In this document: positions 8,327-26,146 of the stretch, piece by piece
How the letters are laid out: each line of letters opens with the position of its first letter
Position numbering within the stretch: position 1 is the stretch's first letter
NCBI RefSeq assembly: GCF_014066305.1
Contig: NW_023501069.1
Span: forward strand, 91,001-155,000
Origin: Letharia columbiana
Taxonomy: Eukaryota; Ascomycota; Lecanoromycetes; Lecanorales; Parmeliaceae
Length of the DNA: 64,000 nucleotides
Direction: 5' to 3'
Translations under genes and position numbers: made by a program
Notes under the pieces: model-generated
What the model was told of the DNA's origin: nothing
The model's input: only the letters and a program-made list of their open reading frames with translations
The model's database searches: none

Positions 8327-8733
8327 AAATCTTAGTTTTTAGTATATCTTTACGAATACTTTATCAAATTTCGTCTTCTCTACATTATTTGAAAGCGTAT
8401 AGTTAACTCTATAACTCTATAAATTTACTTTATTATCATTTATTACGTAACGTGAAAGGAATTAAATAGAATAAATTAATAAAATTGATGTTCGAGGTTC
8501 AGCCTTATGGTGCTTCCTCTTTTGGACGTACCCGTGTTTAGATCGAAAATGAAAGAAATAAGGTGTGTTTTAGACTAGAAATCGTGAAATCCGATAATTT
8601 GATTGGTCACTAGCATCTTAGCGTAGCACCCATTCTCGTTTTCAAGTCTTGAGTATTGAGAAAGCAAGCTTTCCAATCAAGAGAATCTACCCATCCAAGT
8701 TGGTAGAAACGTGCCTACAGGCAATGACTATGT

Positions 8734-9913
8734 TCAACAGCACTTTCCTTTCCTGTTTATGGCAAGACTTTGAGCGCCGTCATTTGCCTCTTCGCCAGTT
8801 GCGATGCCCAGCCAACTTTGGCGCTTGTTGCTCAGTTTGAAGCTACCTTGGACATCCGAAAGGCCTTCAAAATAGCCACCTTGACCCCTTTTCTGACCCG
8901 GCGTGTTGTTGCGTTCGTCTCGCAACTGTTCCTGCTCCTTCTTGTTCTTCTGTTCCACAAGCTTTCTCGTGATAACACGGAACACCTCTTCAATACCTTC
9001 ACCATTTGATGCACTGATCTCATGGCAACAGTCCCAGCCTTTCACGTTGTCGGAGTCAGTATTTCTTCTTTGAGATGGAGAGGGAGTCACAAGACAGGGT
9101 CGTGAGTACTCTCGGAGCATGTCCCGGAAATCAAACCGGGGTACGAATTAGAGGGATGTTGCTCCGAAGTGACGTACCAATTTCTTGGCCCCAGAAACCG
9201 CTGCTGCGAGCGCTTCCAGGGAAGGTAGGGGTTGAGACCTTTTGCGGATAGAGGTTCTCTGCAACATATGCTATACATCTTTCGAATGGAATCTGTCTTA
9301 GACTGGGCTCTTGCGCGACCACATCGCTTTTCGTTCCTACGACGTGTATGACGATATCATTCCCAAGATTCTCCCTCATCTCCGTCAACCAGCGTCCCAT
9401 CTCTTCGAAGCTGCTTTCATCTATGATACTGTAGACAAGGAGTACTGCACTTGCTCCTCTGTAGTACAGTTTTGTGATGGATCTGAATCTCTCTTGACCT
9501 GCTGTGTCCCATAGCTCTACGCAGATTCAGGAGTCAGCATTGTTTATTCGAGATCGGAAATGGAGTTGCAAGACAGGTCCCGGGAGTAGAAAGGCCTTCT
9601 TGCTCCCGAAACATGTCCTGCGACTCAACTTCAATACCAAATAGGAAGGATCAGCTCCGAAATGTACGTACGGAGGCGTACCGTAGTTCCGGTGTCAACA
9701 TCAACCACCCTCTTAGTGAGGAAAGACGCCCCGATAGTTGATGTGACGCTGGATGGGCTAAAGGATCCTTTGATATATCGGTCTAATAAGCTTGACTTAC
9801 CGACACCTACGCGCGATCAGCTAGCTACCTGAGCAGAAAATGCCATGTTTGTTGTGTGGTAACGAACCTTGCGCACCTAGGACGCAAATTTTAGCCTCGA
9901 GGCTATTGGACAT
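8734..9913 (-). CDS. Rab/Ypt-like small GTPase with two introner-like introns
   Basis: Exons 9913-9868, 9806-9672, 9516-9178 and 9038-8734; 274 aa. G1 GAQGVGKS residues 13-20, switch I region TSTIGASF, G3 WDTAGQE from 63, FRSITKLYYRGASA, G4 as GTKSD (Thr in place of the usual Asn), G5 SASNGEG. The C-terminus ends Lys-Cys-Cys, a Rab-type geranylgeranylation signal. About 274 aa is longer than a usual Rab (200-220) because of an insertion after the AYVAENL region and an extended tail. The Rab subfamily is not assigned; it resembles divergent fungal endosomal Rabs. Intron 1 (9807-9867) is ordinary, while introns 2 (9517-9671) and 3 (9039-9177) belong to the introner-like family. The start is the only ATG in frame before LEAKICVLG. 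Divergent from the b5/FMN dehydrogenase. Confidence 0.88.
9039..9177 (-). mobile_element. introner-like element: intron 3 of the Rab-like gene
   Basis: 139-nt spliceosomal intron, phase 1. Read on the minus strand it begins GTACGTCACTTCGGAG and ends near CTGACTCCGAC...AAAG. TTCGGAG at the 5' end pairs with CTCCGA at the 3' end. The inner arms (TTTCCGGGACATG and a later CTTGTGACTCC) fit the same nested design as the other family members, but more degraded. Confidence 0.75.
9517..9671 (-). mobile_element. introner-like element: intron 2 of the Rab-like gene
   Basis: 155-nt intron, phase 1, the best-preserved family member. On the minus strand it starts GTACGTACATTTCGGAGC and ends GCTGACTCCTGAATCTGC then GTAG. 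The interior contains GAGTCGCAGGACATGTTTC and, further on, its near reverse complement GGGACCTGTCTTGCAACTCC, so an inner stem lies within an outer stem. Splicing at these ends restores the Rab frame exactly (VRLQ|LWDTAGQE). Confidence 0.88.
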
Positions 9914-10801
9914 TATTTATCATCCATGATGAATTTTGCGTTGGCTCTATGGCTGTTTTAGTCGACAAAAGAATCTATCTTGTCGACGTCTTCTGATGGC
10001 GGTGATTGGAAACTCGCGCCCACTCCTTCCGGATTTAACGATCTCCCGTCAGCCCTAGCCGCAATTCTCATCTGGCAGACTGGCACCAGGGGCACGCGGG
10101 GTCAAAAAAGCCTGCACACGCCAAGAAATCCCCTTATTTTACTCTTTGAAATAATTCTATTTATATTGTCTTTACAAAATATGTTTTGCGGCGAGACTTA
10201 TTATTTCTGATGTGATCTTTAACATATGAAGCGGAAGCCTTTTGTTATGACCACTCGTTGACAAGTTGTGGTAGATTTGCAGATTTTGGGGTGTGCAGGC
10301 TTTATTGGTGACTGGCTGCCTTTTCCCCTGCCCATCTTCTCCAAGCGAACATGATTCAGCTTTGTGAGAATTCAAAGGAGTATCTAATCACGCAACGAAA
10401 GTCTGACTTGTTCGCATCCACTATTGCAAGAGGTCAGATAGAGTAAGATTAGAGTCTCTCAATCCAATCCCTCACTTCCTTCACCAACCCCACCTTGTTT
10501 ATCTCCGGCGCTTAGTCCCCGCAAAACGATCGACAATGCTCTACCCCAGGCCTGCTCAGCGCCGCCCATTGCCCGAAGCTTCATCGCCCATCCGGCAAAT
10601 AATTGGCAATGTTCGTTTCGGAGTTGCAAGCATCCCAGCAAGCGCTGCATCATTGTTAACTACTGTTCTCCCCCTTTCGTTTCTCAAAAGCGGTCTACCG
10701 CCAGGGTTTTACTTTACAAGCTCTTTTTGCCATCATTGTTTCTGTCTCTTGGTTTGTCTCTCTAGCATTAAGCATCTCTCGAAATCAAGACCTCGCTCAA
10801 T
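9914..10801. promoter_or_regulatory. divergent intergenic region with a MITE-like insert
   Basis: 888 bp between the divergent starts of the Rab-like gene and the b5/FMN dehydrogenase. The middle holds an inverted-repeat element (about 10,073-10,321). CT-rich sequence precedes the dehydrogenase start (10,655-10,770), as is common in fungal core promoters. Confidence 0.5.
10073..10321. mobile_element. MITE-like inverted-repeat element, about 250 bp
   Basis: The left end contains GGCAGACTGGCACCA and AAAAGCCTGCACACGCCAAG (10,075-10,125). The right end contains the reverse complements, GGGGTGTGCAGGCTTT and TTGGTGACTGGCTGCC (10,288-10,320). The interior is AT-rich and non-coding. The arms match imperfectly (roughly 80 percent by eye). 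Confidence 0.55.
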
Positions 10802-13030
10802 ATGAACCACGAGTCGAATGATCAGCAGCCAAAGGAGCAAAAGCTGCGTGGCGAAGAAGTGGCCAAACATAATAATGACAAAGACTGCTGGTTGGTTTCC
10901 CCCAACCTCCCCGCTGCCGTTATTCTGTTCCACTGAACCATCGATTCGGCAGGGTCATTATCCACGGTAGAGTCTACGATGTCACCGAGTTCAAAGAAGA
11001 GCACCCAGGAGGTAAATCCAGTGAGTCCACTACGCCAAGGAGAAACAGACTCGTACACTGAAGCATTGGATACAGTCATTCTTAAGTGGGCTGGCAAAGA
11101 TGCCACCGAGACGTACAATCCTATACACCCCCCGGACACCCTTGATAAGTTAGAAACCATTTCAGACTTCTAGGACTGAAGGTGAGTAAAGAGCTGAAAA
11201 CGACCAGGTTTCTTGATAAATCGAAGCACTTGGGAGAAGTGAACATGGATACAGTGGAACAAGAAAAAGAATTCGACCCCGATGAAGAAGAACGGCAAGA
11301 GAGAATCAAACGCATGCCGATTTTGGAACAATGCTACAACCTAATGGACTTTGAGGCTGTGGCGCGACGGGTAATGAAGAAGACCGCATGGGCTTACTAC
11401 TCCAGCGGATCAGATGATGAGATTGTGAGCCAATGATGTACCATTCTTGCAAAATACTGACAGTGTACGAGACGATGCGAGAAAACCATTCAGCCTTCCA
11501 TAAGATATGGTTTCGACCAAGAATCCTTCACGATGTTGAAAATATAGATCTCTCCACCCAAATGCTTGGAACTAAAGTAGACATTCCATTCTATGTCACT
11601 GCGACAGCACTGGGTCAGTAGCGCTATCCTGGCACTTCCATCGGAGAACCTGCATTTCTAATGTGATTGTAGGTAAACTTGGCAATTCCGAAGGCGAAGT
11701 AATACTCACACGTGGTGCGAAGAAACATAATGTCATCCAGATGATTCCCACACTCGCTAGCTGTTCTTTTGACGAGATTGTCGATGCCAGGCAGGGTGAC
11801 CAGGCACAATGGCTCCAGCTCTACGTAAACAAAGACCGCGCAATTACGGAACGTATAATCAAACATGCCGAGAATCGTGGGTGTAGAGGTCTCTTCATTA
11901 CTGTCGATGCACCTCAGGTTCGTACGTTTCGGAGTAATCACTTCCTTCTTTATGCCGAATTCTGGGTTGCAAGACATAGTTCTGGGGCAGAAGACTCTTT
12001 CTACAACGCTGACTCCGAAATGTGCGTAGCTCGGCCGCCGGGAGAAGGATATGCGCAGCAAATTTTCTGATGTGGGATCGAATGTGCAAAACACCGGCGG
12101 CGACAACGTGGATAGATCCCAAGGCGCTGCACGTGCTATCTCTTCCTTCATCGACCCATCACTTAGCTGGAAAGATATTCCCTGGTTCCTCGGCGTGACG
12201 AGTATGCCAATCCTTCTTAAGGGTGTACAAAGGGTTGAAGATGTCATCCGAGCTATCGAGGTTGGCGTCCAAGGTGTTGTACTTTCCAACCATGGTGGCC
12301 GCCAGCTCGACTTTGCAAGGTCAGGAATCGAAGTTCTTGCTGAAGTTATGCCCGTCTTGCGTGAACGTAATTGGCAGGATAGGATCGAGATATATATTGA
12401 TGGCGGTATTCGACGTTCTACTGACATAATCAAGGCGTTGTGCTTGGGCGCAAGAGGGGTGGGCATTGGCAGACCGTTTCTATATGCTATGAGTGCTTAC
12501 GGACTGCCTGGCGTGGACCGAGCCATGTATGTACATTTCGGAGCCTATTCTTCCTGTTCAGTACCACATTCCGAGTCACAAGACATGTTTCGCGAAGAAA
12601 GGGTCTTTTACTCCCCTGAAGCTGTCTGATTGGAGACTTGCCTCGAAGAAGAGATGCTGACCCCGAAACCTCTATAGGCAATTGCTGAAAGATGAAATGG
12701 AGATGAACATGAGACTCAGTAAGGCACTTTTCGGAGTTGTCTCTTCCTGTTCGAGATTGCTTTTTGAGTCCTGAGACATGCTGGAGGAACAAGTTACCCA
12801 ATCCACCCTTTCTATTCCTCAACGATATCCTGTTTCTCAAATCTTCATCAACGAATGAGAGTGCTGATTCAGGAATTGTGCTAGTTGGCTGCTCCAAGGT
12901 TGATCAACTCAACCCCACGCTCCTGGACACTAGAGGCCTGAGCATGCATTCGACTTCAGTGCCAGCAGATACCTTGGGTATGACCATCTATGATCCGCTC
13001 GTAAACCCACAGGAGAAGGCGAAGCTATGA
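10802..13030 (+). CDS. cytochrome b5 / FMN-dependent 2-hydroxyacid dehydrogenase (flavocytochrome b2-like)
   Basis: Nine exons: 10802-10890, 10953-11020, 11076-11148, 11208-11424, 11472-11613, 11673-11917, 12030-12526, 12678-12718, 12885-13030; 505 aa, all phases consistent. N-terminal cytochrome b5 domain with heme ligand His in HPGG and a second His in YNPIHPP. The C-terminal TIM-barrel FMN domain has PFYVTATALGKLG, LFITVDAPQ, the catalytic His/Arg segment SNHGGRQLD and the FMN-phosphate region DGGIRRSTDIIKALCLGARG. Flavocytochrome b2 oxidises L-lactate to pyruvate and passes electrons to cytochrome c in the mitochondrial intermembrane space. This protein starts directly before the b5 domain and shows no bipartite mitochondrial presequence, so another location or another 2-hydroxyacid substrate is possible. 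Introns 1-5 are 47-62 nt; introns 6-8 are 112, 151 and 166 nt and belong to the introner-like family. Confidence 0.92.
11918..12029 (+). mobile_element. introner-like element: intron 6 of the b5/FMN dehydrogenase
   Basis: 112-nt intron, phase 0. It starts GTTCGTACGTTTCGGAG, contains GGGTTGCAAGACATAG and ends CGCTGACTCCGAAATGTG then CGTAG. The terminal TTTCGGAG and CTCCGAAA are perfect reverse complements. The distal half of the inner stem is missing, so this looks like an internally deleted copy. Confidence 0.9.
12527..12677 (+). mobile_element. introner-like element: intron 7 of the b5/FMN dehydrogenase
   Basis: 151-nt intron, phase 2. It starts GTATGTACATTTCGGAGCC, contains GAGTCACAAGACATGTTTC and ends TGCTGACCCCGAAACCTC then TATAG. 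The terminal stem TTTCGG pairs with CCGAAA. Confidence 0.85.
12719..12884 (+). mobile_element. decayed introner-like element: intron 8 of the b5/FMN dehydrogenase
   Basis: 166-nt intron, phase 1. It starts GTAAGGCACTTTTCGGAG, followed by TCTCTTCC as in its relatives, and ends GTGCTGATTCAGGAATTG then TGCTAG. The inner core is recognisable only as GAGTCCTGAGACATGCTGGA. The reduced similarity suggests an older insertion than introns 6 and 7. Confidence 0.7.
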
Positions 13031-13154
13031 GCATGTCAGTCTCTAATATCTTGCGGTGTTTTGCAGTGAAACTTCTTTTACGCATGCCCATATATATGCT
13101 TATGTAAATAGAATACGAAAGAAGTCGCGAAAAATACTTAGGCTTACACTGTTC

Positions 13155-14123
13155 TTATATATTTACAGTCTGCGCAGGATTCCCAAGTCGTCCTGTACTT
13201 CTATACATCAATGCCGCGTTAATCATTACCGTCCCCCTTCCATCTCCACCCCAGACTCTATACCATAGTATACTCAGAATGCCGTACATTGCCAACTTCA
13301 TCATATCCAGCCAGGCTAGGATGGCCACCATATCCCTAACCACGCCCTTGACTTCCCTCGAACACAACTTTTCATACAGTATCTGTGTATCATCCCAGAA
13401 CACCTGTACACGACCGTGGCTTGCGTGTATATGCCCAAAGATGTGTACCTTGGGTCTCACTCTCCAGACCTCCTTTGACAAGTAATCGCATCCTAATCCG
13501 GCAGGCAGATCCAGATGATGCCTTGGTGGCGTATGGGTGATTAAGACATCGACATCTGGTGGAATGGTGTACGACCACGCATCGTCGCTTCGATGATACT
13601 GGAAGGCAAAATCCTCCCCACCGCATTGGGGGACTTGTGGTGCGCCATAAAAGCGCAACTGGCGGTGCGCTTGACTGGGAAAGGTGAGCTGAACGCTGGA
13701 GTGCTGGAGATAGTGCACATCACCCCACCGTGGCGCTTTGCCAGCATCGGTTTTCCGCCTTGCTCGTGGATCAAACCAACTGTCGTGATTACCAGCAATG
13801 ACGACCTTGTGCTCATAAGGTAGAGAAGATATCCAATCAATCTGATCTTGAATCTCGGCAACTGTGCCGTCACTGGTAAGGTCACCCGCATGCACTAGGA
13901 CGTCTCCCTGAGGTAGGAAAGTAGGTTTGTGTGTATGGGTGTCGGAAATGCAGACAATACGGATTTGACTTGAAGATGGAGGCTTGGAGGTAGACGGGCC
14001 CCGCAGAAATAGAATAAGGTTGTAGAGCGTCTGAGTCAAGAATCTCAGCGGTGAGCTAAGCAGGCGATATGGGATAGAAGGCGGCTCGAAGGGGGAGGGT
14101 GGAGGTATGAGTAGAGAGGCCAT
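13155..14123 (-). CDS. calcineurin-like metallophosphoesterase (MPPED-like)
   Basis: Intronless, 322 aa. The five metallophosphoesterase metal-binding motifs appear in order: SDTHTH near residue 59, GDLT near 80, GNHD near 110, THTPP near 195 and GHIHASHG near 226. These coordinate a two-metal centre that hydrolyses phosphoesters. The spacing resembles the MPPED1/2 and Ser/Thr-phosphatase-superfamily proteins common in fungi, whose substrates are mostly unknown. An N-terminal hydrophobic stretch (FLTQTLYNLILFL) and a C-terminal one (MVAILAWLDMMKLAMYGIL) suggest membrane association. Converges with the b5/FMN dehydrogenase, 124 bp stop to stop, and diverges from IST2. Confidence 0.9.
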   Translation of the reverse strand: MASLLIPPPSPFEPPSIPYRLLSSPLRFLTQTLYNLILFLRGPSTSKPPSSSQIRIVCISDTHTHKPTFLPQGDVLVHAGDLTSDGTVAEIQDQIDWISSLPYEHKVVIAGNHDSWFDPRARRKTDAGKAPRWGDVHYLQHSSVQLTFPSQAHRQLRFYGAPQVPQCGGEDFAFQYHRSDDAWSYTIPPDVDVLITHTPPRHHLDLPAGLGCDYLSKEVWRVRPKVHIFGHIHASHGRVQVFWDDTQILYEKLCSREVKGVVRDMVAILAWLDMMKLAMYGILSILWYRVWGGDGRGTVMINAALMYRSTGRLGNPAQTVNI

Positions 14124-14490
14124 GGGAAAGAGGCTGTAGGATCGATCGACTGTAGCCTCTTGTGGAAAATGAACCGCAGTCCTAACAGAAAATCATTCCT
14201 CGAACTTCGGGGAACAATGACTAATAATACCCAGACGCAGTGGTTCTGCAGGAGGAATTTCGGCCCGGAGAAAAGGGTTTTCCGATCACGACCAAGAAGG
14301 TACCAACGTGCCAACCCCTTCCGAGTAGACTACTTTACCCTTGTTTGTCGCGAAGCGCGATGACGTCTAGCCTCCTCCAACTTTCCAAGCTCCGCTGTCT
14401 GAGTCTCCAAGTTTGGAGGAAGTCAAGTCAGAGGAAGTCAAGTCAGACCTCGAGACTTTTGAATCTAGAAGACTGACTCTGAGCGCAAAC
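14124..14490. promoter_or_regulatory. divergent promoter region, metallophosphoesterase / IST2
   Basis: 367 bp between two divergent ATGs. A short direct tandem repeat, GAGGAAGTCAAGTCA twice, lies at about 14,416-14,445 just upstream of the IST2 start. No other repeated site is evident. Confidence 0.45.
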
Positions 14491-16829
14491 ATGCCTCCAC
14501 ACCATAATATACCGCATGACAACTTGAAAGTTGACTATGTCATTATTTACAGATTCGCGGATTCCAGTAAGTCGCGTAATCCCTCCCGTGGAAAGCATCT
14601 GTCTGACAAGACCAACTCTTACAGCTAAGACGGAGGCTTCAAGAAGCTTTCAGGACCTTGTGCAGGCACTGGCTAGGGTAGGCCTCGCGATTGAGGTTCG
14701 GAACGGAGGGAATTGCTCCCTTCTGATCTTCGTCAAAGTGGCTTCCGATGAGCGTCTCAACAACGCCATCTATCGCTCCAGGTGCGCACCAAAATCATAA
14801 ATGTTATAAGTCATCTAACAGAAGCTGTAGAGTAAAGGACTGGCTTTACGGCATAAGGCCCGCCCAGCCGGATCGGGAAACGCAGAACTCGTTGACAAGC
14901 CAGCCGCTGACAGAAGCTGAACGGTATCGTATAGTCCACCAGCTGATCACAGGTCCAAAGGAAGAAGGAAATGCTGGGATCGTTCCCACTCATGGTCAAT
15001 GGAAGAACGTAGAGTCTATCTTCCCACTCCACGATCATACCTTCAACAAGGAATGGATCAAGAAATGGGCGACCGTGACGTTTCTCAAAGTGGAGGACTT
15101 GGACGAGATCAGAAATCGATTCGGCGAGAAAGTCGCATACTACTTCGCCTTCACACAATCCTACTTTGCCTTTTTAATTTTCCCTGCGGCCTTCGGTTTC
15201 TCGTCGTGGGTCTTGTTAGGCCATTTCTCGTCCATCTACGCAGTTGTCAACTGTCTGTGGAGCGTGGTTTTTATCGAATACTGGAAACGGCAAGAGGTAG
15301 ATCTCGGTATCCGCTGGGGCGTGAAAGGTGTTTCAGCCATTCAGGAGAAGCGAAGAGAGTTTCAGCACGAAAAGGAAATCCAAGATCCGATCACTGGTGA
15401 GGCTGTACAGGTCTTCCCAGCAACGAAGAGGTTGTATAGACAGCTTCTCCAGCTACCGTTTGCTGTCCTGGCATCTTTGGCACTTGGACTAATTATAGCC
15501 ACCTGTTTTGGCATTGAGATCTTCCTATCCGAGGTCTACAATGGACCATTCAAGAGTATTCTGGTAAAGCCAGTGGTCCTCAGCGATGTTTTCAAGACAC
15601 TGATTCCCATGTAGGTATTCCTCCCTACGCTACTTCTCACAGCTTTGGTCCCTACAATCACAACGATACTGACCGAGATTGCGACGCGACTTAACAACTA
15701 CGAAAACTGGGAAACCACCGACGCTTATGATTCTGCCATGACCCAGAAAATCTTCATTCTCAACTTCATCACTTCATACCTTCCAGTCTTCCTAACAGCG
15801 TTCGTCTACGTGCCGTTTGGCAGCTTAATCGTGCCTTATCTGGATATCTTCCAGCTGACTGCGCGTCCCTTTGCGGAAAATGAGAAGCAGCTTGCGACTC
15901 CAAAAGCGGGGTTTGCCATCAATCCAGCAAGGCTCCGGAAGCAGGTTATCTACTTCGCTGTCACAGCGCAAATAGTCAACTTCGCGATGGAGACCATCGT
16001 CCCTTACGTCAAGCGCAGAGGTTTTCACAAGTATCAAGAGCTTAAGACCGAGAGAGCCGCCAGGAAGGGAGGTGCTGCTCCAAACGCAGCTGCGAACGAT
16101 CTGCCTGAAGAAGCCGAGTTTCTTGCAAGAGTCCGCGGCGAGGCCGAGCTCGATGTCTACGATGTGTCTACGGATCTGAGAGAGATGGTTGTCCAATTTG
16201 GCTATCTGACCCTTTTTTCGGTGGTATGGCCGGTGACGGCTGTGTCATTCCTCATCAACAACTGGGTGGAACTTCGCTCGGACGCTGTCAAGATCTGCGT
16301 TGAGATGCAACGCCCAACTCCGCACCGAGTCGACAGCATTGGACCATGGCTGGATAGCTTGGGATTTCTTACATGGTTAGGCAGCATTTCTACTGCCGCC
16401 CTCGTATATCTCTTCAGCAATGATGGCTTAGGCCCAGACGGCACGCCAGCAGACATCAAAGGATGGGCTTTTCTCCTGACCGTCTTCTTCTCCGAGCATA
16501 TATATCTCTTGGTTCGCCTTGCAGTACGTTTAGCGATCTCCAAAATGGACTCGCCAGGAATGCAAAAGGAGCATGCAGAACGGTTCATGGTTCGTAAACG
16601 CTATTTCGAAGAATCCTTCGGGGAAGATGCAATGGAGCTGCCGCCACCAATGGACAGAGAAAAGATCACGCGGTCATCGCTGGAGGAAGAAGCTCGACAA
16701 GGCAGTATGAGGAGCTCTACTCCCCAGGATCAGTTCTGGTTGAGGCAGCGAAGCTGGGAAGAATCATCTTCGATCGGCATGGGTCTCATTGAGAAGATGG
16801 CACCAGCAGAGAGTAGGAAGCAACAATGA
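14491..16829 (+). CDS. IST2: Ist2-like anoctamin (TMEM16 family) membrane protein
   Basis: Exons 14491-14566, 14625-14781, 14831-15563 and 15615-16829; 726 aa with consistent phases. The N-terminal alpha-beta domain (VDYVIIYRFADS, SRSFQDLVQALARVGLAIEVRNGG) and YRSRVKDWLYG precede the anoctamin core. Seen there: multiple hydrophobic helices (FAFLIFPAAFGFSSWVLLG, LLLTALVPTITTIL, FLTAFVYVPFGSLIVPYL), the family-typical RWGVKG and NNYENWETTDAYDSA, and the TDLREMVVQFGYLTLF region. Yeast Ist2 tethers cortical ER to the plasma membrane and helps lipid transfer; many TMEM16 relatives are Ca2+-activated scramblases. The C-terminal tail is charged (KITRSSLEEEARQG) but short. At the start of exon 3 two in-frame AGs exist (14,821 and 14,830); the second gives the conserved SRVKDW join. 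Confidence 0.93.
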
Positions 16830-17138
16830 AAGCAACGGGTTTTCATGGATGCCTGAAGCGTTGACTAGCGTTCATAATGCCGTCCTGCCTTATCATTTGT
16901 ATTCATAATCGTTCCTTGGGCATTTCTTGCATACGCCCATACTCACCCTGAGGCGTCCTGCCCAAATCGCATATTTCATAATGCCACTGTAGTTCCTATA
17001 TTGAGCTACGATTTGGGTCGTGTGCATGCATTTGACCAACAGCCTTGGCAGCGAAACCCATATGATGTTCCCCCACTCACGCCTCGCCACTATGCATATT
17101 GTCCATATGCAAGCAAGCCCATTGCGAAACCAGCATTC
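16830..17138. other. convergent intergenic region, no gene seen
   Basis: 309 bp between the stops of IST2 (+) and CWC26 (-). I see no coding or repeat signal; probably 3' UTRs and terminators. Confidence 0.5.
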
Positions 17139-18164
17139 TCATTCATCCATTTGCCAAGCGTAATCAAGATTCTTCAAATTTGCCGTGCGATTCCTAGCGG
17201 CAAAATACTCTTTTTCAAATCCTGTTCCTCTATCAACCCCGTCCCATCTGTGACCCGGCCTAATCCCATATCGATTCGGCGTTGCAGGTCCCTTGTACAA
17301 CGGTTTCCCGCTGACACTTTTGCCCTCCTTTTTCCTCTCAAGGAACCCGGCTGCTGGATCGTTCCATCTTTCCCTCTCCATCAAATCCTCGTTCAGCTCC
17401 ACATCATCCGCGTACCTCGCTACAGGCATAAACTTCGCCTCACTCAGCTGCTCTCTGCGCTTCTCCTTCTCGGCTCGCTGGAAGTCTCCCTTTTGACCTT
17501 CGAGTTCCGCCGCTGCTTTGGCCGCTTCTTCTTCGGCTTTTTTACGGGCTTCCGCCCGCTTCATCTGCACATTGATGATGCGGCCACTGGCATCTCTATA
17601 TATGGTTTCCTTCCCTTTGCCGCTATGGTCGTCTCCGTCTTCCAGGAACCTTCGCCGTTCTTCGGCTTCCTTACGCTTCAGCTGTGCAGTGACTTGATCC
17701 GCCGTCTGTAGCCCCGCATGGGCGCCCGATTCCATTTTCATGGCCGAATCTTCCATAGTAGGGGCATCATCATCCGCGAGAGCACGAGCCCGAGATTCAG
17801 CAGCTGAAAATGTAAGAATAGCGTCGGCTGCGGCTTGTTCATTGGAGGAAGGTGTTGGAGTGCCGATGGTCTGCCATGTTGTTTTTTTTGCTTTGCGAAA
17901 TTCGGCGCTGTTTGCGTTCACTGATAACTTAGGGTCAAAGAGTGGGACAATCGGTTGAAGGCAGGAGGACAAATATTTCTCACCTTCCAGCGGTGCATCG
18001 TCGTCAGCGTTGCCCGTGCTGTCACGGTCCCAGCCTAAGGCATCATCGTCTGCTATTATGAGACCCGAGGCTGCACCGTCCTTCCGCTTGCGCTTCTTTG
18101 ACTTTTTCTGCTGCTTCGAGTCCGCTGTCAGGTAGTTTTTCGCAAGGTAGTCCGCGAGGGACAT
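17139..18164 (-). CDS. CWC26: Pre-mRNA-splicing factor CWC26/BUD13 (RES complex)
   Basis: Starts at MSLADYLAKNYL, the family's conserved N-terminus; an upstream in-frame Met would add 12 residues and is less likely. A lysine-rich stretch follows (KKSKKRKRKDG), then an acidic linker, an Arg/Glu coiled region (RDASGRIINVQMKRAEARKK) and the conserved Bud13 tail YKGPATPNRYGIRPGHRWDG ending LDYAWQMDE. Bud13 with Pml1 and Snu17 forms the RES complex, which binds the activated spliceosome and aids splicing and nuclear pre-mRNA retention. A GT-AG stretch 17921-17983 is 63 nt, stop-free and in frame. Splicing it gives 320 aa and joins the acidic linker to NSAEFRKAKKTTW as in relatives; retaining it gives 341 aa. 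Shares a 185-bp promoter with the alkyltransferase-like gene. Confidence 0.92.
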   Translation of the reverse strand: MSLADYLAKNYLTADSKQQKKSKKRKRKDGAASGLIIADDDALGWDRDSTGNADDDAPLEGEKYLSSCLQPIVPLFDPKLSVNANSAEFRKAKKTTWQTIGTPTPSSNEQAAADAILTFSAAESRARALADDDAPTMEDSAMKMESGAHAGLQTADQVTAQLKRKEAEERRRFLEDGDDHSGKGKETIYRDASGRIINVQMKRAEARKKAEEEAAKAAAELEGQKGDFQRAEKEKRREQLSEAKFMPVARYADDVELNEDLMERERWNDPAAGFLERKKEGKSVSGKPLYKGPATPNRYGIRPGHRWDGVDRGTGFEKEYFAARNRTANLKNLDYAWQMDE

Positions 18165-18349
18165 ACTTGATAATCTGGAGCTTGATTGAATTTTGAGCAA
18201 GATCTCGAATTCTGGGGAAAAGCTTGGCAGCCGCGGCTATCTTTTATTTTATTATAATTTAGGCAAACGCGAAGCGCGTTTCAGTATCAATCAAGACTTG
18301 CTCCTCTACCACCTTTATACATCAAATCAAACTTAGCTGGGCAAAGAAA
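18165..18349. promoter_or_regulatory. short bidirectional promoter, CWC26 / alkyltransferase-like gene
   Basis: 185 bp between divergent ATGs. It contains an AT-rich patch (about 18,240-18,265) and the near-palindrome ACGCGAAGCGCGT at 18,268-18,280, a possible MluI-box-like site. Confidence 0.45.
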
Positions 18350-19107
18350 ATGGCCCGTAGTGATGAAGCGGAGTGGTGGTTCAATGCCGTTTACGCAGCA
18401 GTCCAGCAAGTCCCTAGGGGACGTGTTACAAGCTACGGTCATATTGCTCGTTTGCTAGGAAGGTGTAAGTAAGATTCCGTTCCGGCCACTACTTTATTCA
18501 TCTGCTGTGAAACACGCCTGATGTGCCATTTTGATTTAGCCGAACGTCCTCGGTCAGCAGTCTCCGGAAAGCACGTCGACGGATTGAGAGCTTATCGAAC
18601 TGTAGACAGGTCGGCGTCTGTCTAAAGCATCTACCGTCTTCCTCAGCAAACACAAATCATCATTTCCACGATGCTAACGTTCCATGGCAACGAGTCATCA
18701 ACGCCAAAGGTATCATATCACCAAGGTCGGCAGTCAGAACTCAATGGAGCTAAATTGTCAATTTTGATAAGAGTCACAGAGGTCCAGGCGGTGCTACGAG
18801 ACAAGCGGCGTTCCTAGGGCGAGGTTCGTACATTTCGGAGTACCTAATTCCCTCCTTTTCGGTGCCGAGTGCTGAGTTGCAAGACATATTTCCGGAGCAG
18901 AAGACCCTTTCCAATCCCAAGACATGTCTTGTGAGGCCTTTGAAAAGCAACGCTGACTCTGAAGTGTGCGCAGAAGGAGTCACTGTTGGAACTGGCGATC
19001 TAGGAGAACTAACGGTAGATCTGAGCGCATATGGGTGGTTTCCTCAGTTCCTAACGAGCGACGGGGCTGAGGCTAGTGAGTCAGAAGAAGAAGAGGGCAG
19101 TGGCTGA
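18350..19107 (+). CDS. ATL1: Alkyltransferase-like protein (ATL) for O6-alkylguanine recognition
   Basis: Exons 18350-18464, 18540-18552 (13 nt), 18606-18725, 18780-18823 and 18974-19107; 141 aa, all phases fitting. It carries the DNA-binding MGMT fold: VPRGRVTSYGHIARLLGR, RQVGVCLKHLP, VPWQRVINAKGIISPR and GPGGATRQAAFL. The alkyl-acceptor Cys of MGMT (PCHRV) is replaced by Trp at residue 70 (PWQRV), the hallmark of ATLs, which flip out O6-alkylguanine and hand it to nucleotide-excision repair instead of removing the alkyl group. About 110-140 aa is typical. A short acidic tail (SESEEEEGSG) ends the protein. Introns 1-3 are 53-75 nt; intron 4 (150 nt) is introner-like. Confidence 0.9.
18824..18973 (+). 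mobile_element. introner-like element: intron 4 of the ATL gene
   Basis: 150-nt intron, phase 1. It starts GTTCGTACATTTCGGAGTAC, contains GAGTTGCAAGACATATTTCC and then GACATGTCTTGTGAGGCC (inner stem), and ends CGCTGACTCTGAAGTGTG then CGCAG. The order of conserved words is the same as in the introns of the Rab-like and b5/FMN genes. Confidence 0.87.
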
Positions 19108-20164
19108 TTTACGAAAATCGAAACTCCAGTTATTCATTTCATCGTTCGTGAGCTCCAGAAAAGATCATTCCAAGTTGTCTTTGGTCAGAGGAATGGGGGA
19201 TACACTGAGACGGAAGCTACCACAACGTTGAGGTTCATTATGCGTGGTGTGTTATTCTTATAGCAGATACGTGAGCCCTTTTAATCATCGTGATTGAGGA
19301 ATGGGGGTTATTTCGGAAGCCGAGTACTCATTATGGAAAGAGAAAACAGGGTTTCCTTTGACGCTGTTTCAAACTCATTGATCACATGATAGCCGAAGTC
19401 ATTTTGGAGGAGTACGAGGTCATGTCATAAAGTAGGTATTCGGAATATAGGATAGCCCTGTTCGACCACCGTAGTACCGAATTTACTTGAACGCTTTTCT
19501 CGTTGGGGTCCAATAATAGAACATGCGCACATATGAGAAGCCCCAAACCCACAATGAAACAAATAGATGCATCGGGTAGTACGATAATTCCTCCATTCCT
19601 GCCAGAGTTGGTTGAATCGGTAGTGGCTGAGCAAGCTGACGGGCCAGTGATGGAGCTGGAGTGAACATGTGCGCGTCCGCCTTATCGCCCCCCGCCTTCC
19701 GTATCGTCACGATGGCCAGGCTTGGTACCCCGAGCTCCTAAACCTGTTGGGGCCTTTGAGAAGCTGCCTTCAAAGCTTGAATCTGTCTATCTGTCTATCT
19801 GTCTATCTGTCTATCTGCTTTCATCGAGTCACCCGTCCTTCTTCCCTCACAAGTCAAAGTCTCTCTTCTGCTTTGTTCCCTTGCACCTGCCTTTGTTTGC
19901 CGGTGACTCAGACGCGTCTGCAAGTAGTCACCCCTACTGACAATACTCATATATCATTCATCCGCCTCACCTGTCTATCCTCTTCATACCCCCCTCATAT
20001 CACGCCATCCATCCGTTTCACCACCCTCCCCTACATCTTTTCCTTCTGCCTCATTGTGAACATCCAATAAACTTCCAGCGGCACAGTTGGAGTCTATATT
20101 CAATCCGCCTCTCATTGAACGAATCTCTTTACGCTCTACACTCAGCCCCGGGTATCAAGCACTT
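19108..20164. other. 1.06-kb intergenic region with a microsatellite
   Basis: Between the ATL stop and the next gene's start. A TCTG/TCTA tetranucleotide tract runs about 19,781-19,817. From 19,840 to 20,080 the plus strand is CT-rich, as in a fungal promoter and 5' leader. No coding exon recognised. Confidence 0.5.
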
Positions 20165-24608: not shown

Positions 24609-26146
24609 TGCTGTGGTAGTATGGAAAGGGGGAATTGTGGTAGATTGAGTGTTTGAAGATGTTGTAGATGTCAGAAAGATTTATAAAAGTTCGCGTATCC
24701 CTGCAAGCGGCGGCTTCATGCACTAGACGGTGGAGATTCTGAGGCAGCATCCCTGCAAATTCCGAGAATTCAAGTAGGGTAGACTCGGTCATTCAGGCGT
24801 ACAGAGGTGAGAGGCTGGGCAAGCTGCCAGATAGAATGTTAATCTGAGACGCGGAAAGCTTCCTTTCCTCATTTCACCTCAACTTGGGCATCGACCTGGA
24901 AGATAATATGTTTCTGAAACAGCACACTCTTTGGAGGAGTTCTGGTCGATATTTAAGGAATCTGCACCGCTTCGACTGTCACCTCGTCCTAGCACCGTGC
25001 TCAAGGCCGTTGCTAAAGCCTAAAGGACAGAGCTCAAGTTTGGAGACATCCTGCTGCTTCGGACTGCATTCATCGCCGCTTTCAACAAGATATCAAAAGA
25101 ACAAGCACGAATTTACGTGTGCTCCCAACCCTATCAGGTGTGGACCAGAGCGAGGGAGTGCTGGAGCAAGTTTGCATTTTGGTACCAATCTTACTCAAAG
25201 ATTACTACTGGTGAATCAAGAGATGTCTCGCGAGCAAAAGGCTCGGTCTGCCCCACGAAGTTTCCCATACTTATGTATTAAAGAAGTTAGGCTATGTTAC
25301 TCCGCTGTAGGTTTTTACTCGTGTAATTTCGAGCCAGGTTGAGTTGCAAGACCTACTCAGACTTGTCTTGAGATTGAAACGATGTTCGTGCCCTAATATT
25401 AATACTAATTTCGAACCTTGTTTGGCTGGAAATCAGCAGACGCAGTGACCCAAAGAGAGTAGCACCTCCATAAGTTTCTATTTTCTGGCTGGAGATTTCA
25501 ATAGTAGATCTCTTCGATCTTGAGACACCTTCCGAGCACTGCAAATGGCCAAAACGATCGTCGTGCTTCGTGTCAAACGAAGTCTGCAATGTGCCTAGTT
25601 GAGTTGCAAGGCAGACATCTTTTAGCCGTTTTTCCAGACGTCGCTGATGGAGTAGTCGACCGAAGATACCGGCTATTATTTGAGAGTGTATGAGCGCGGT
25701 GTCTTCGGGCCGCAAGAAGTCAGCCGAACACTAATACCATTGTTTGGACATTTGTGGTATACTGCCATTCGGTTTGTGATTCGAAGTGCTTCTCACACAA
25801 TCACTCTTGAACCTCTGATCTCGAAACTGTTTGCGGTCTCAGAGAGCCGATCGCGACAACTGCGCGTTTCGTGTAGAATAGATCCATCACTTCAATACCC
25901 AAAATAACTCATCTTTTGGGCTCGATGTCAATATTCGAAACCCATTCAATATTCATGTGCCCTTGGCATTTGGCATTTCCCCTTCTATGAGCATTTCGGA
26001 TTCATTTGTCGAGCTTGATGTGCCCCCAGTCGTGTTGCGCTAGATGCTTGCGTCCTCAAAACTTCCCGGCTAATAAATCTCAGGGCGATCGACGTGCCAA
26101 AGTGTAACATTGGGTATCTGAATGCACTGTCGCTACGTGTGATATG
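24609..26146. other. 1.5-kb intergenic region, no supported gene
   Basis: Between the RCC1 start and the ARL1 stop. A 144-codon ATG-led frame (24,908-25,342) has no recognisable protein sequence or splice structure. Two places (about 25,340-25,378 and 25,598-25,622) carry GAGTTGCAAGAC or GAGTTGCAAGGC, the core word of the introner-like family, outside any gene. Confidence 0.45.

What the first reader, a model, noticed from the sequence alone, without database searches (positions are those of the whole stretch)
9039..18973. A family of six introner-like introns in three unrelated genes
Six introns (Rab-like gene introns 2 and 3; b5/FMN dehydrogenase introns 6, 7 and 8; ATL intron 4) share the same sequence words in the same order: a GTACRTTTCGGAG-type donor end, TTCC about 10 bases on, GAGTTGCAAGACATG in the middle, and TGCTGACTCCGAA..TGTGCGTAG at the acceptor, with the branch point inside CTGAC. 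They are 112-166 nt long, while ordinary introns in the same genes are 47-75 nt. All six splice out in frame. Host genes are unrelated, so common descent of the introns implies recent multiplication, as described for introner-like elements of Dothideomycetes.
Basis: partly seen in the sequence, partly recalled or inferred. Interest (0 to 1): 0.9.

Follow-up and report, generated by a model that had tools for sequence, protein, structure and literature searches.

The report
Copying introns in a lichen fungus
A lichen-forming fungus carries a family of near-alike introns that has spread through its genes, and each branch of the family tends to sit between its own pair of coding bases, a clue to how new introns arise.

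Summary
The six window introns belong to a large family: a 3' end pattern has 175 matches genome-wide (reversed control 0), a 5' end pattern 199 (control 25). I read 83 full-length copies. Nearly all lie in unrelated coding genes, in sense; 75 have GT..AG at the family's own ends. Host proteins align without gaps across five window junctions. Lineage consensi fold end to end as one hairpin.

The host is not a Dothideomycete: its proteins are closest to Parmeliaceae lichen fungi, for which the library searched holds no introner report.

What looks new: related copies tend to share the exon base just before and just after the intron (C|A, G|G, G|A, G|C, T|G by lineage), but not bases further out. 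Codon phase 1 is in excess, 40 of 69 against 24.0 expected. Published Xylariales families are called seamless and random. The same donor end serves C|A and G|N copies, so donor strength does not explain it. I favour seamless insertion from an intron copy (RNA route inferred), with target choice partly set by the element. Sister species could not be tested.

The parts
9039..9177 (-). ILE copy, Rab-like gene intron 3 (139 nt, flanks G|G), degenerate
9517..9671 (-). ILE copy, lineage B, Rab-like gene intron 2 (155 nt, flanks C|A, splits a Gln codon), full-length hairpin (z -5.55)
11918..12029 (+). ILE copy, lineage-A-like by eye, middle missing (profile 1-86 then 130-155), b5/FMN dehydrogenase intron 6 (112 nt, flanks G|C)
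12527..12677 (+). ILE copy, group C, dehydrogenase intron 7 (151 nt, flanks T|G)
12719..12884 (+). ILE copy, degenerate, dehydrogenase intron 8 (166 nt, flanks A|T)
18824..18973 (+). ILE copy, lineage A, ATL-like gene (150 nt, flanks G|A)
10802..13030 (+). host gene: cytochrome b5 / FMN-dependent dehydrogenase (flavocytochrome b2 type), 505 aa after removal of 8 introns
   Evidence: end computed from 505 codons, a stop and 711 intron bases, and read

Best explanation
A family of mobile spliceosomal introns (introner-like elements, ILEs) in a Parmeliaceae-like lichen fungus. Shown on the copies read: both splice sites and a CTGAC branch-site-like motif belong to the element; nearly all copies lie in coding sequence in sense; five window copies are removed without changing the protein; lineage consensi are end-to-end imperfect palindromes; there is no duplication common to all lineages; related copies tend to keep the same pair of bases at the two exon positions that touch the intron. 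Inferred: an excised intron RNA (or a DNA copy made from it) is joined seamlessly into transcribed genes by a reverse-splicing-like or break-repair step, and the element itself biases which two bases it is joined between. The hairpin does not seem to be needed for splicing. The confidence is for the whole; the RNA step taken alone I put near one half, and some rivals below concern only that step.
For: Copy number: 175 and 199 end matches. Sense and genic: with the ILE cut out, the ILE strand had the better coding score in 73 of 75 clean-border copies and the junction fell inside a predicted exon in 69 of 75; 43 of 44 further profile matches in the same loci point the same way (a few of the 44 are pieces of one long copy). 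Pfam domains span the junction in 8 of 10 spliced hosts (one of the eight, L061, by two residues only) and 4 of 4. Seamless: no gap at three dehydrogenase junctions in 12 proteins and at two Rab junctions in 12, with the Gln at the C|A junction invariant. Symmetry: six consensi score 116-166 against their own reverse complement, letter shuffles mean 35-40 (sd 11-13); folding energy -50 to -67, letter shuffles mean -33 to -38. Lineage memory: on a maximum-likelihood tree of 73 copies 16 changes at -1 and 17 at +1; 500 shuffles have means 27.6 and 31.0, minima 20 and 25; -2, +2 and -4 are at the shuffled level.
Against: The RNA step is not shown. In symmetric pairs G.U and A.C mismatches are about equal (555 and 515 over 83 copies, 35 and 31 over six consensi), while upkeep as an RNA helix should favour G.U; a second count is mixed (shared changes G.U 43, A.C 28 in B; 20 and 29 in A; 10 and 15 in D). 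In lineage A, 9 of 13 copies have exon GT after the intron (one of them next to another ILE), so a GGT duplication cannot be excluded there. Flank memory is a tendency: 12 of 58 nearest neighbours differ at -1 and 18 of 58 at +1. Up to 4 of 83 copies lack better coding support on their own strand (L007, L038, L098, L121) and might be non-genic. Copies were found through conserved ends and only part of the matches was read. No RNA reads and no sister genome were available.
Confidence: 0.72

Rival explanations
1. Non-autonomous DNA transposon (MITE-like introner): the near-terminal inverted repeats are transposase sites, insertion makes no or a very short duplication, and only sense copies in exons survive.
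For: Near-terminal inverted repeat ACATTTCGGAGT/ACTCCGAAATGT in lineage A; about equal G.U and A.C mismatch fits DNA-level symmetry; GGT repeats in 9 of 13 lineage-A copies; precise target bases are common for transposases (general knowledge).
Against: No duplication in the C|A copies; both splice sites are carried; few if any intergenic copies among the 83 read (at most 4); I noticed no long element with these ends in the loci read, about 1.5 kb to each side, but did not search for one systematically; one transposase would not be expected to give each lineage its own target.
Confidence: 0.25
2. Templated break repair: a break in a gene is filled by copying an ILE from another gene, the switch in and out using one matching base on each side, so the -1 and +1 bases are inherited from the donor.
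For: The bases at -1 and +1 show inheritance, those at -2 and +2 do not; at the Rab site and at L022 the C|A pair appears to predate the intron, since the Gln it encodes is conserved.
Against: Homology-driven copying should fade gradually outward, not stop after exactly one base at the splice borders; it does not explain the phase-1 excess or the palindrome.
Confidence: 0.2
3. The flank pairs and the phase bias are survivorship: insertion is random and selection keeps sites where that lineage splices well.
For: Flanks influence splicing in general; phase 2 is rarest (7 of 69), and the B1, B2 and B3 consensi read in phase 2 have no stop codon.
Against: Many C|A and G|N copies share the identical 17-nt donor end; C at -1 is not a strong donor context (general knowledge); short introns predicted in the same loci without ILE kinship show C|A in 11 of 207 and no phase bias (these predictions are noisy).
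Confidence: 0.15
4. Old introns related by gene duplication or segmental copying.
For: None beyond sequence similarity.
Against: Hosts belong to unrelated families; exon bases beyond -1 and +1 are not shared by related copies.
Confidence: 0.01

Closest known systems
Fungal introner-like elements of Dothideomycetes (van der Burgt 2012 and Torriani 2011 seen only as cited in other papers; Collemare 2015, PMC4457414: abstract and introduction read, rest searched by term)
   Same: Many similar spliceosomal introns in unrelated genes, several families per genome, inverted-repeat or stable secondary structure, seamless insertion.
   Different: Different class (Lecanoromycetes); sequence not compared with published families; lineage-linked flanking bases and phase-1 excess found here.
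Sister stwintrons and cropped sister introns of Hypoxylaceae/Xylariaceae (PMC8469720: abstract, passages, section 3.6; PMC12403724: passages and two sections)
   Same: Terminal symmetry; a near-terminal inverted repeat of about 10 nt between branch site and acceptor; seamless insertion; no duplication.
   Different: Here single introns, not [D1,2] twin introns; the repeat sequence differs; those papers report integration sites as random, without flank bias and (2021) without phase bias.
Introners as DNA transposons (Huff 2016, seen only as cited; Gozashti 2022, PMC9860276: first part of the results and passages)
   Same: Intron-sized mobile units in exons, with inverted repeats near both ends.
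   Different: No duplication common to all lineages and no clear splice-site co-option; Gozashti 2022 states that ascomycete families have no TIRs or TSDs.

Membership tests
Fungal introner-like elements | Many similar introns in unrelated genes | tested here: met
Fungal introner-like elements | Similarity reaches both splice borders | tested here: met
   75 of 83 copies have GT..AG at the profile ends, allowing one extra base at the acceptor
Fungal introner-like elements | Stable secondary structure / inverted repeats | tested here: met
   Six consensi and window copies 9517 (z -5.55), 18824 (z -2.89) and 11918 (z -2.53); not in 12527 and 12719 (z +0.45, +0.34), weak in 9039 (z -1.35)
Fungal introner-like elements | Seamless insertion, no gain or loss of coding sequence | tested here: met
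   for five window copies
Fungal introner-like elements | Absent at the same sites in close relatives | not testable with these tools
   No DNA of related fungi held
Fungal introner-like elements | Sequence kinship with a published ILE family | not tested
   No published ILE sequence set was read
DNA-transposon introners | Target-site duplication | tested here: inconclusive
   None visible in the C|A copies; GGT at both ends in 9 of 13 lineage-A copies
DNA-transposon introners | Terminal inverted repeats | tested here: met
   Near-terminal helix in all six consensi
DNA-transposon introners | One splice site taken from the target | tested here: not met
   Both splice sites are part of the conserved element; for lineage A the GT could in principle come from the target
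[D1,2] sister stwintrons | Internal intron splitting the donor between bases 1 and 2 | tested here: not met
   Copies read are single introns; L004 and L005 are head-to-tail pairs with 0 nt between, L042 with 1 nt by eye, 2 by the profile

The most novel reading that the evidence does not exclude
The intron takes part in choosing its own target: a short stretch of the element (the columns with most information on the flanks include several in the apical stem-loop, 73-78) or a guide made from it selects the two exon bases to be joined, so that lineages evolve new target pairs, much as group II introns do with exon-binding sites, but in a spliceosomal intron.
Probability: 0.25. Interest if true: 0.9.

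Novelty: new variant of a known kind. Interest (0 to 1): 0.7.

Why it matters
How new spliceosomal introns arise is an old open question. For the symmetrical introns of Xylariales the insertion sites have been called random, which leaves little to test. A family with several lineages, each leaning to one exon base pair and to codon phase 1, gives a measurable signature that any mechanism must reproduce: reverse splicing, transposition and break repair predict different flanks. It also extends this kind of intron spread to a lichen fungus.

Tried and rejected
Rejected: a Dothideomycete host. Rejected: that the element brings the two flanking bases as an addition to the mRNA (it would shift the frame; proteins are gapless), or as a replacement of target bases (Gln at two C|A sites is conserved; replacement would favour phases 0 and 2, the reverse). 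Not supported: a hairpin kept by RNA wobble pairing (mixed). Weak: covariation between consensi, 24 double changes against 10.4 (sd 5.0), p 0.013. Null: divergence against folding energy within lineages, rho 0.06, p 0.73, n 42; divergence against symmetry rho -0.29, p 0.066. Over all 83 copies profile score against symmetry has rho 0.73, but that score itself rewards likeness to the consensus, so decay of the hairpin with age is suggested only. No simple complement or identity rule between one element column and the flanks was found. RNAalifold on the first mixed alignment gave no pair, so model R1 was sequence-only and in the end unused. A 120-nt codon score was too weak to call strand: 49 of 69 sense. 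Lineage memory of codon phase itself: none (24 changes, shuffles 25.2). Solved-structure search on the permease: no match; on the P450: one weak match, of no use at the junction. Rfam: nothing in 8500-19500. In one search, 250 predicted introns over 90 nt without ILE kinship were left out of the comparison set of 207.
Full report
What is there. The window is contig 34, 91001-155000, of a 52.2-Mb genome in 161 contigs. Six introns in three genes share one sequence plan. I fixed their borders by removing them and reading the proteins. The b5/FMN dehydrogenase then gives a 505-aa protein that aligns without a gap at all three ILE junctions (VDAPQ|LGRRE, RAMQLL, MRLIGC) with 11 homologues of 83-93% identity. 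The Rab-like protein has VRL[Q]LWDTAGQ, with Gln invariant in 12 sequences, at the 9517-9671 junction, and GWDCCHE intact at 9039-9177. The ATL junction was read in the sequence only.

Whose genome. Imshaugia is placed in Parmeliaceae, Lecanoromycetes. I conclude a Parmeliaceae-like lichen fungus; the species is not known.

How many. The 3' end pattern (22 places, up to 3 mismatches) has 88 plus 87 matches, control 0 plus 0; the 5' pattern (17 places, up to 2 mismatches) 99 plus 100, control 13 plus 12. So about 175 copies at the least. By my reading of the six window 3' ends, three lie within the pattern's mismatch limit, so several hundred in all is my estimate, not a count. Only the first 100 places per search were listed, and I could read only part of those (see Tried and rejected). 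A profile from good copies, run on the loci held, gave 370 rows and 263 distinct matched stretches at E up to 0.01, opposite-strand self-matches included; 83 full-length copies were kept.

Lineages and age. Clustering gives B (47 copies), A (15), D (4, or 5 with one neighbour), group C and single ones. The closest pair is 96.1% identical, the median nearest neighbour 86%.

Structure. Six groups set by hand (A, B1 = B copies with C|A, B2, B3, C, D) give consensi that are close to their own reverse complement along their length and fold as one hairpin. In the window 9517-9671 has z -5.55, 18824-18973 z -2.89, 11918-12029 z -2.53, 9039-9177 z -1.35, 12527-12677 z +0.45, 12719-12884 z +0.34. Two ordinary introns of the dehydrogenase gene: z +0.60 and +0.37. 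As the unstructured copies still restore the protein, splicing does not seem to need the hairpin. In symmetric pairs the individual copies show 555 G.U and 515 A.C, the six consensi 35 and 31; selection on an RNA helix should give a clear excess of G.U. A count on RNAalifold pairs is mixed: shared changes G.U 43 and A.C 28 in B, 20 and 29 in A, 10 and 15 in D.

In genes and in sense. A small ab initio gene finder written for this purpose scored the ILE strand higher in 79 of 83 copies (not in L007, L038, L098; L121 had no coding score on either strand) and chose exactly the ILE borders in 43 of 83. With the ILE removed beforehand, for the 75 clean-border copies, 73 are sense and 69 junctions lie inside a predicted exon; the two exceptions in strand are L033 and L122. 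A few of the predicted peptides contain a stop near the junction (L041, L015). Of 44 further profile matches (E up to 1e-6) in 29 loci, 43 have the orientation of the strongest copy in their locus; the exception is in L038, and a few of the 44 are pieces of one long copy. Pfam domains cross the junction in carbon-nitrogen hydrolase, pyridine nucleotide-disulphide oxidoreductase, molybdate transporter, two MFS proteins, ABC2 membrane (by two residues), alpha-galactosidase and sugar transporter hosts; there is no match for L035, and in L069 the match ends before the junction. P450, flavin monooxygenase, amino acid permease and protein kinase hosts likewise have a domain across the junction.

The new signal. 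Seventy-five of 83 copies have clean borders. The exon bases touching the intron are: A, G|G 12 and G|A 1 of 13; B, C|A 19, G|A 11, G|C 8, G|G 4, G|T 1, A|A 1 of 44; D, T|G 3, C|G 1, G|G 1 of 5; the rest, T|G 4, G|G 3, G|C 2 and four single others of 13. Leaving out copies flanked by another ILE, 73 remain; for the 58 whose nearest neighbour differs by under 22%, neighbours agree at -1 in 46 (shuffled 24.2) and at +1 in 40 (21.7), 0 of 2000 shuffles reaching either. Of the other 14 positions tested, 13 are at the null level; -8 is reached by 20 of 2000 shuffles, not unusual for 16 tests. On a maximum-likelihood tree (quick search) -1 needs 16 changes, +1 needs 17, positions -5 to -2 and +2 to +5 need 36-40; 500 shuffles have means 27.6 and 31.0 with minima 20 and 25. 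These tests do not use the hand-set groups. The rule has exceptions: L026 is close to the C|A copies in sequence but sits at G|G. Many C|A and G|N copies of B share the identical 17-nt 5' end, so donor strength does not dictate the flank.

Target chosen, not brought. At two C|A sites the split codon encodes a Gln conserved in distant homologues: the Rab-like protein and L022, aligned to a bacterial steroid monooxygenase. So the pair was there before the intron at these two. Other C|A sites were not tested this way with a usable result.

Phase. Of 69 copies with a called phase, 40 are phase 1; 24.0 are expected if each base pair were hit in proportion to its place in long reading frames (0 of 20000 simulations reach 40). 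C|A: 16 of 20, expected 5.6; T|G: 6 of 7, expected 1.0; G|G 9 of 18, expected 6.7; G|A 7 of 12, expected 5.9; G|C 1 of 9, expected 3.7. Predicted introns up to 90 nt without ILE kinship in the same loci: phases 66, 70, 71 and C|A in 11 of 207. The gene finder is crude, and its near-even phases and flanks for ordinary introns suggest that part of those 207 are false; random errors would dilute the ILE excess rather than make it.

Literature. Fekete 2021 (PMC8469720, section 3.6 read) found no flank pattern and no phase bias among 48 Hypoxylon elements. The 2025 paper (PMC12403724, passages and two sections read) stwintron sites seamless and random and describes a 10-nt near-terminal inverted repeat between branch site and acceptor, an architecture like the one here. 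Gozashti 2022 (PMC9860276, passages and part of the results read) says ascomycete families lack TIRs and TSDs and are outliers. A search for introner with lichen in the held library gave two papers, neither on this by title and abstract; two further searches on lichen introns listed none either. The library lacks most subscription papers and all preprints.

Mechanism. Seamless entry, own splice sites, sense genic position and no common duplication fit insertion from an excised intron better than a cut-and-paste transposon; the G.U/A.C balance and the GGT repeats of lineage A are the best arguments for DNA. The inherited flank pair fits neither a blind spliceosome nor a single transposase. It asks for target choice that depends on the element, or for copying with one matching base on each side. 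Columns richest in information about the flanks include several in the apical stem-loop (75 for -1; 77, 78, 73 for +1), but lineages differ at many columns, so this is a lead only.

Noticed in passing
window 25175-25259 (+): A partial, weak profile match (E 7e-4) that may be a seventh, very old copy in the window.
   Followed up: no
L004:1455-1754, L005:1233-1604, L042:1339-1707: Head-to-tail pairs of copies with 0 nt (L004, L005) or 1 nt by eye (L042) between them: one copy sits right at the border of another.
   Followed up: partly
L005:1233-1455, L034:1303-1522, L042:1501-1707: A longer form of about 220 nt in which the middle of the element matches the profile twice, as if partly duplicated inside.
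   Followed up: no
L038:1500-1790: Two copies overlap or nest, with a third in opposite orientation about 1 kb away; coding score is better on the other strand (6.5 against 20.6). Possibly non-genic.
   Followed up: no
lineage A copies: Nine of 13 lineage-A copies have exon GT directly after the intron, giving GGT at both ends.
   Followed up: partly
window, Rab-like gene and dehydrogenase gene (about 8700-13030): The two genes are neighbours here and have adjacent locus numbers in another lichen fungus (MMC07_009950/009951).
   Followed up: no
P0122 (Alectoria sarmentosa): The public protein model has 18 extra residues exactly at Rab intron 1, probably an intron read as exon.
   Followed up: no
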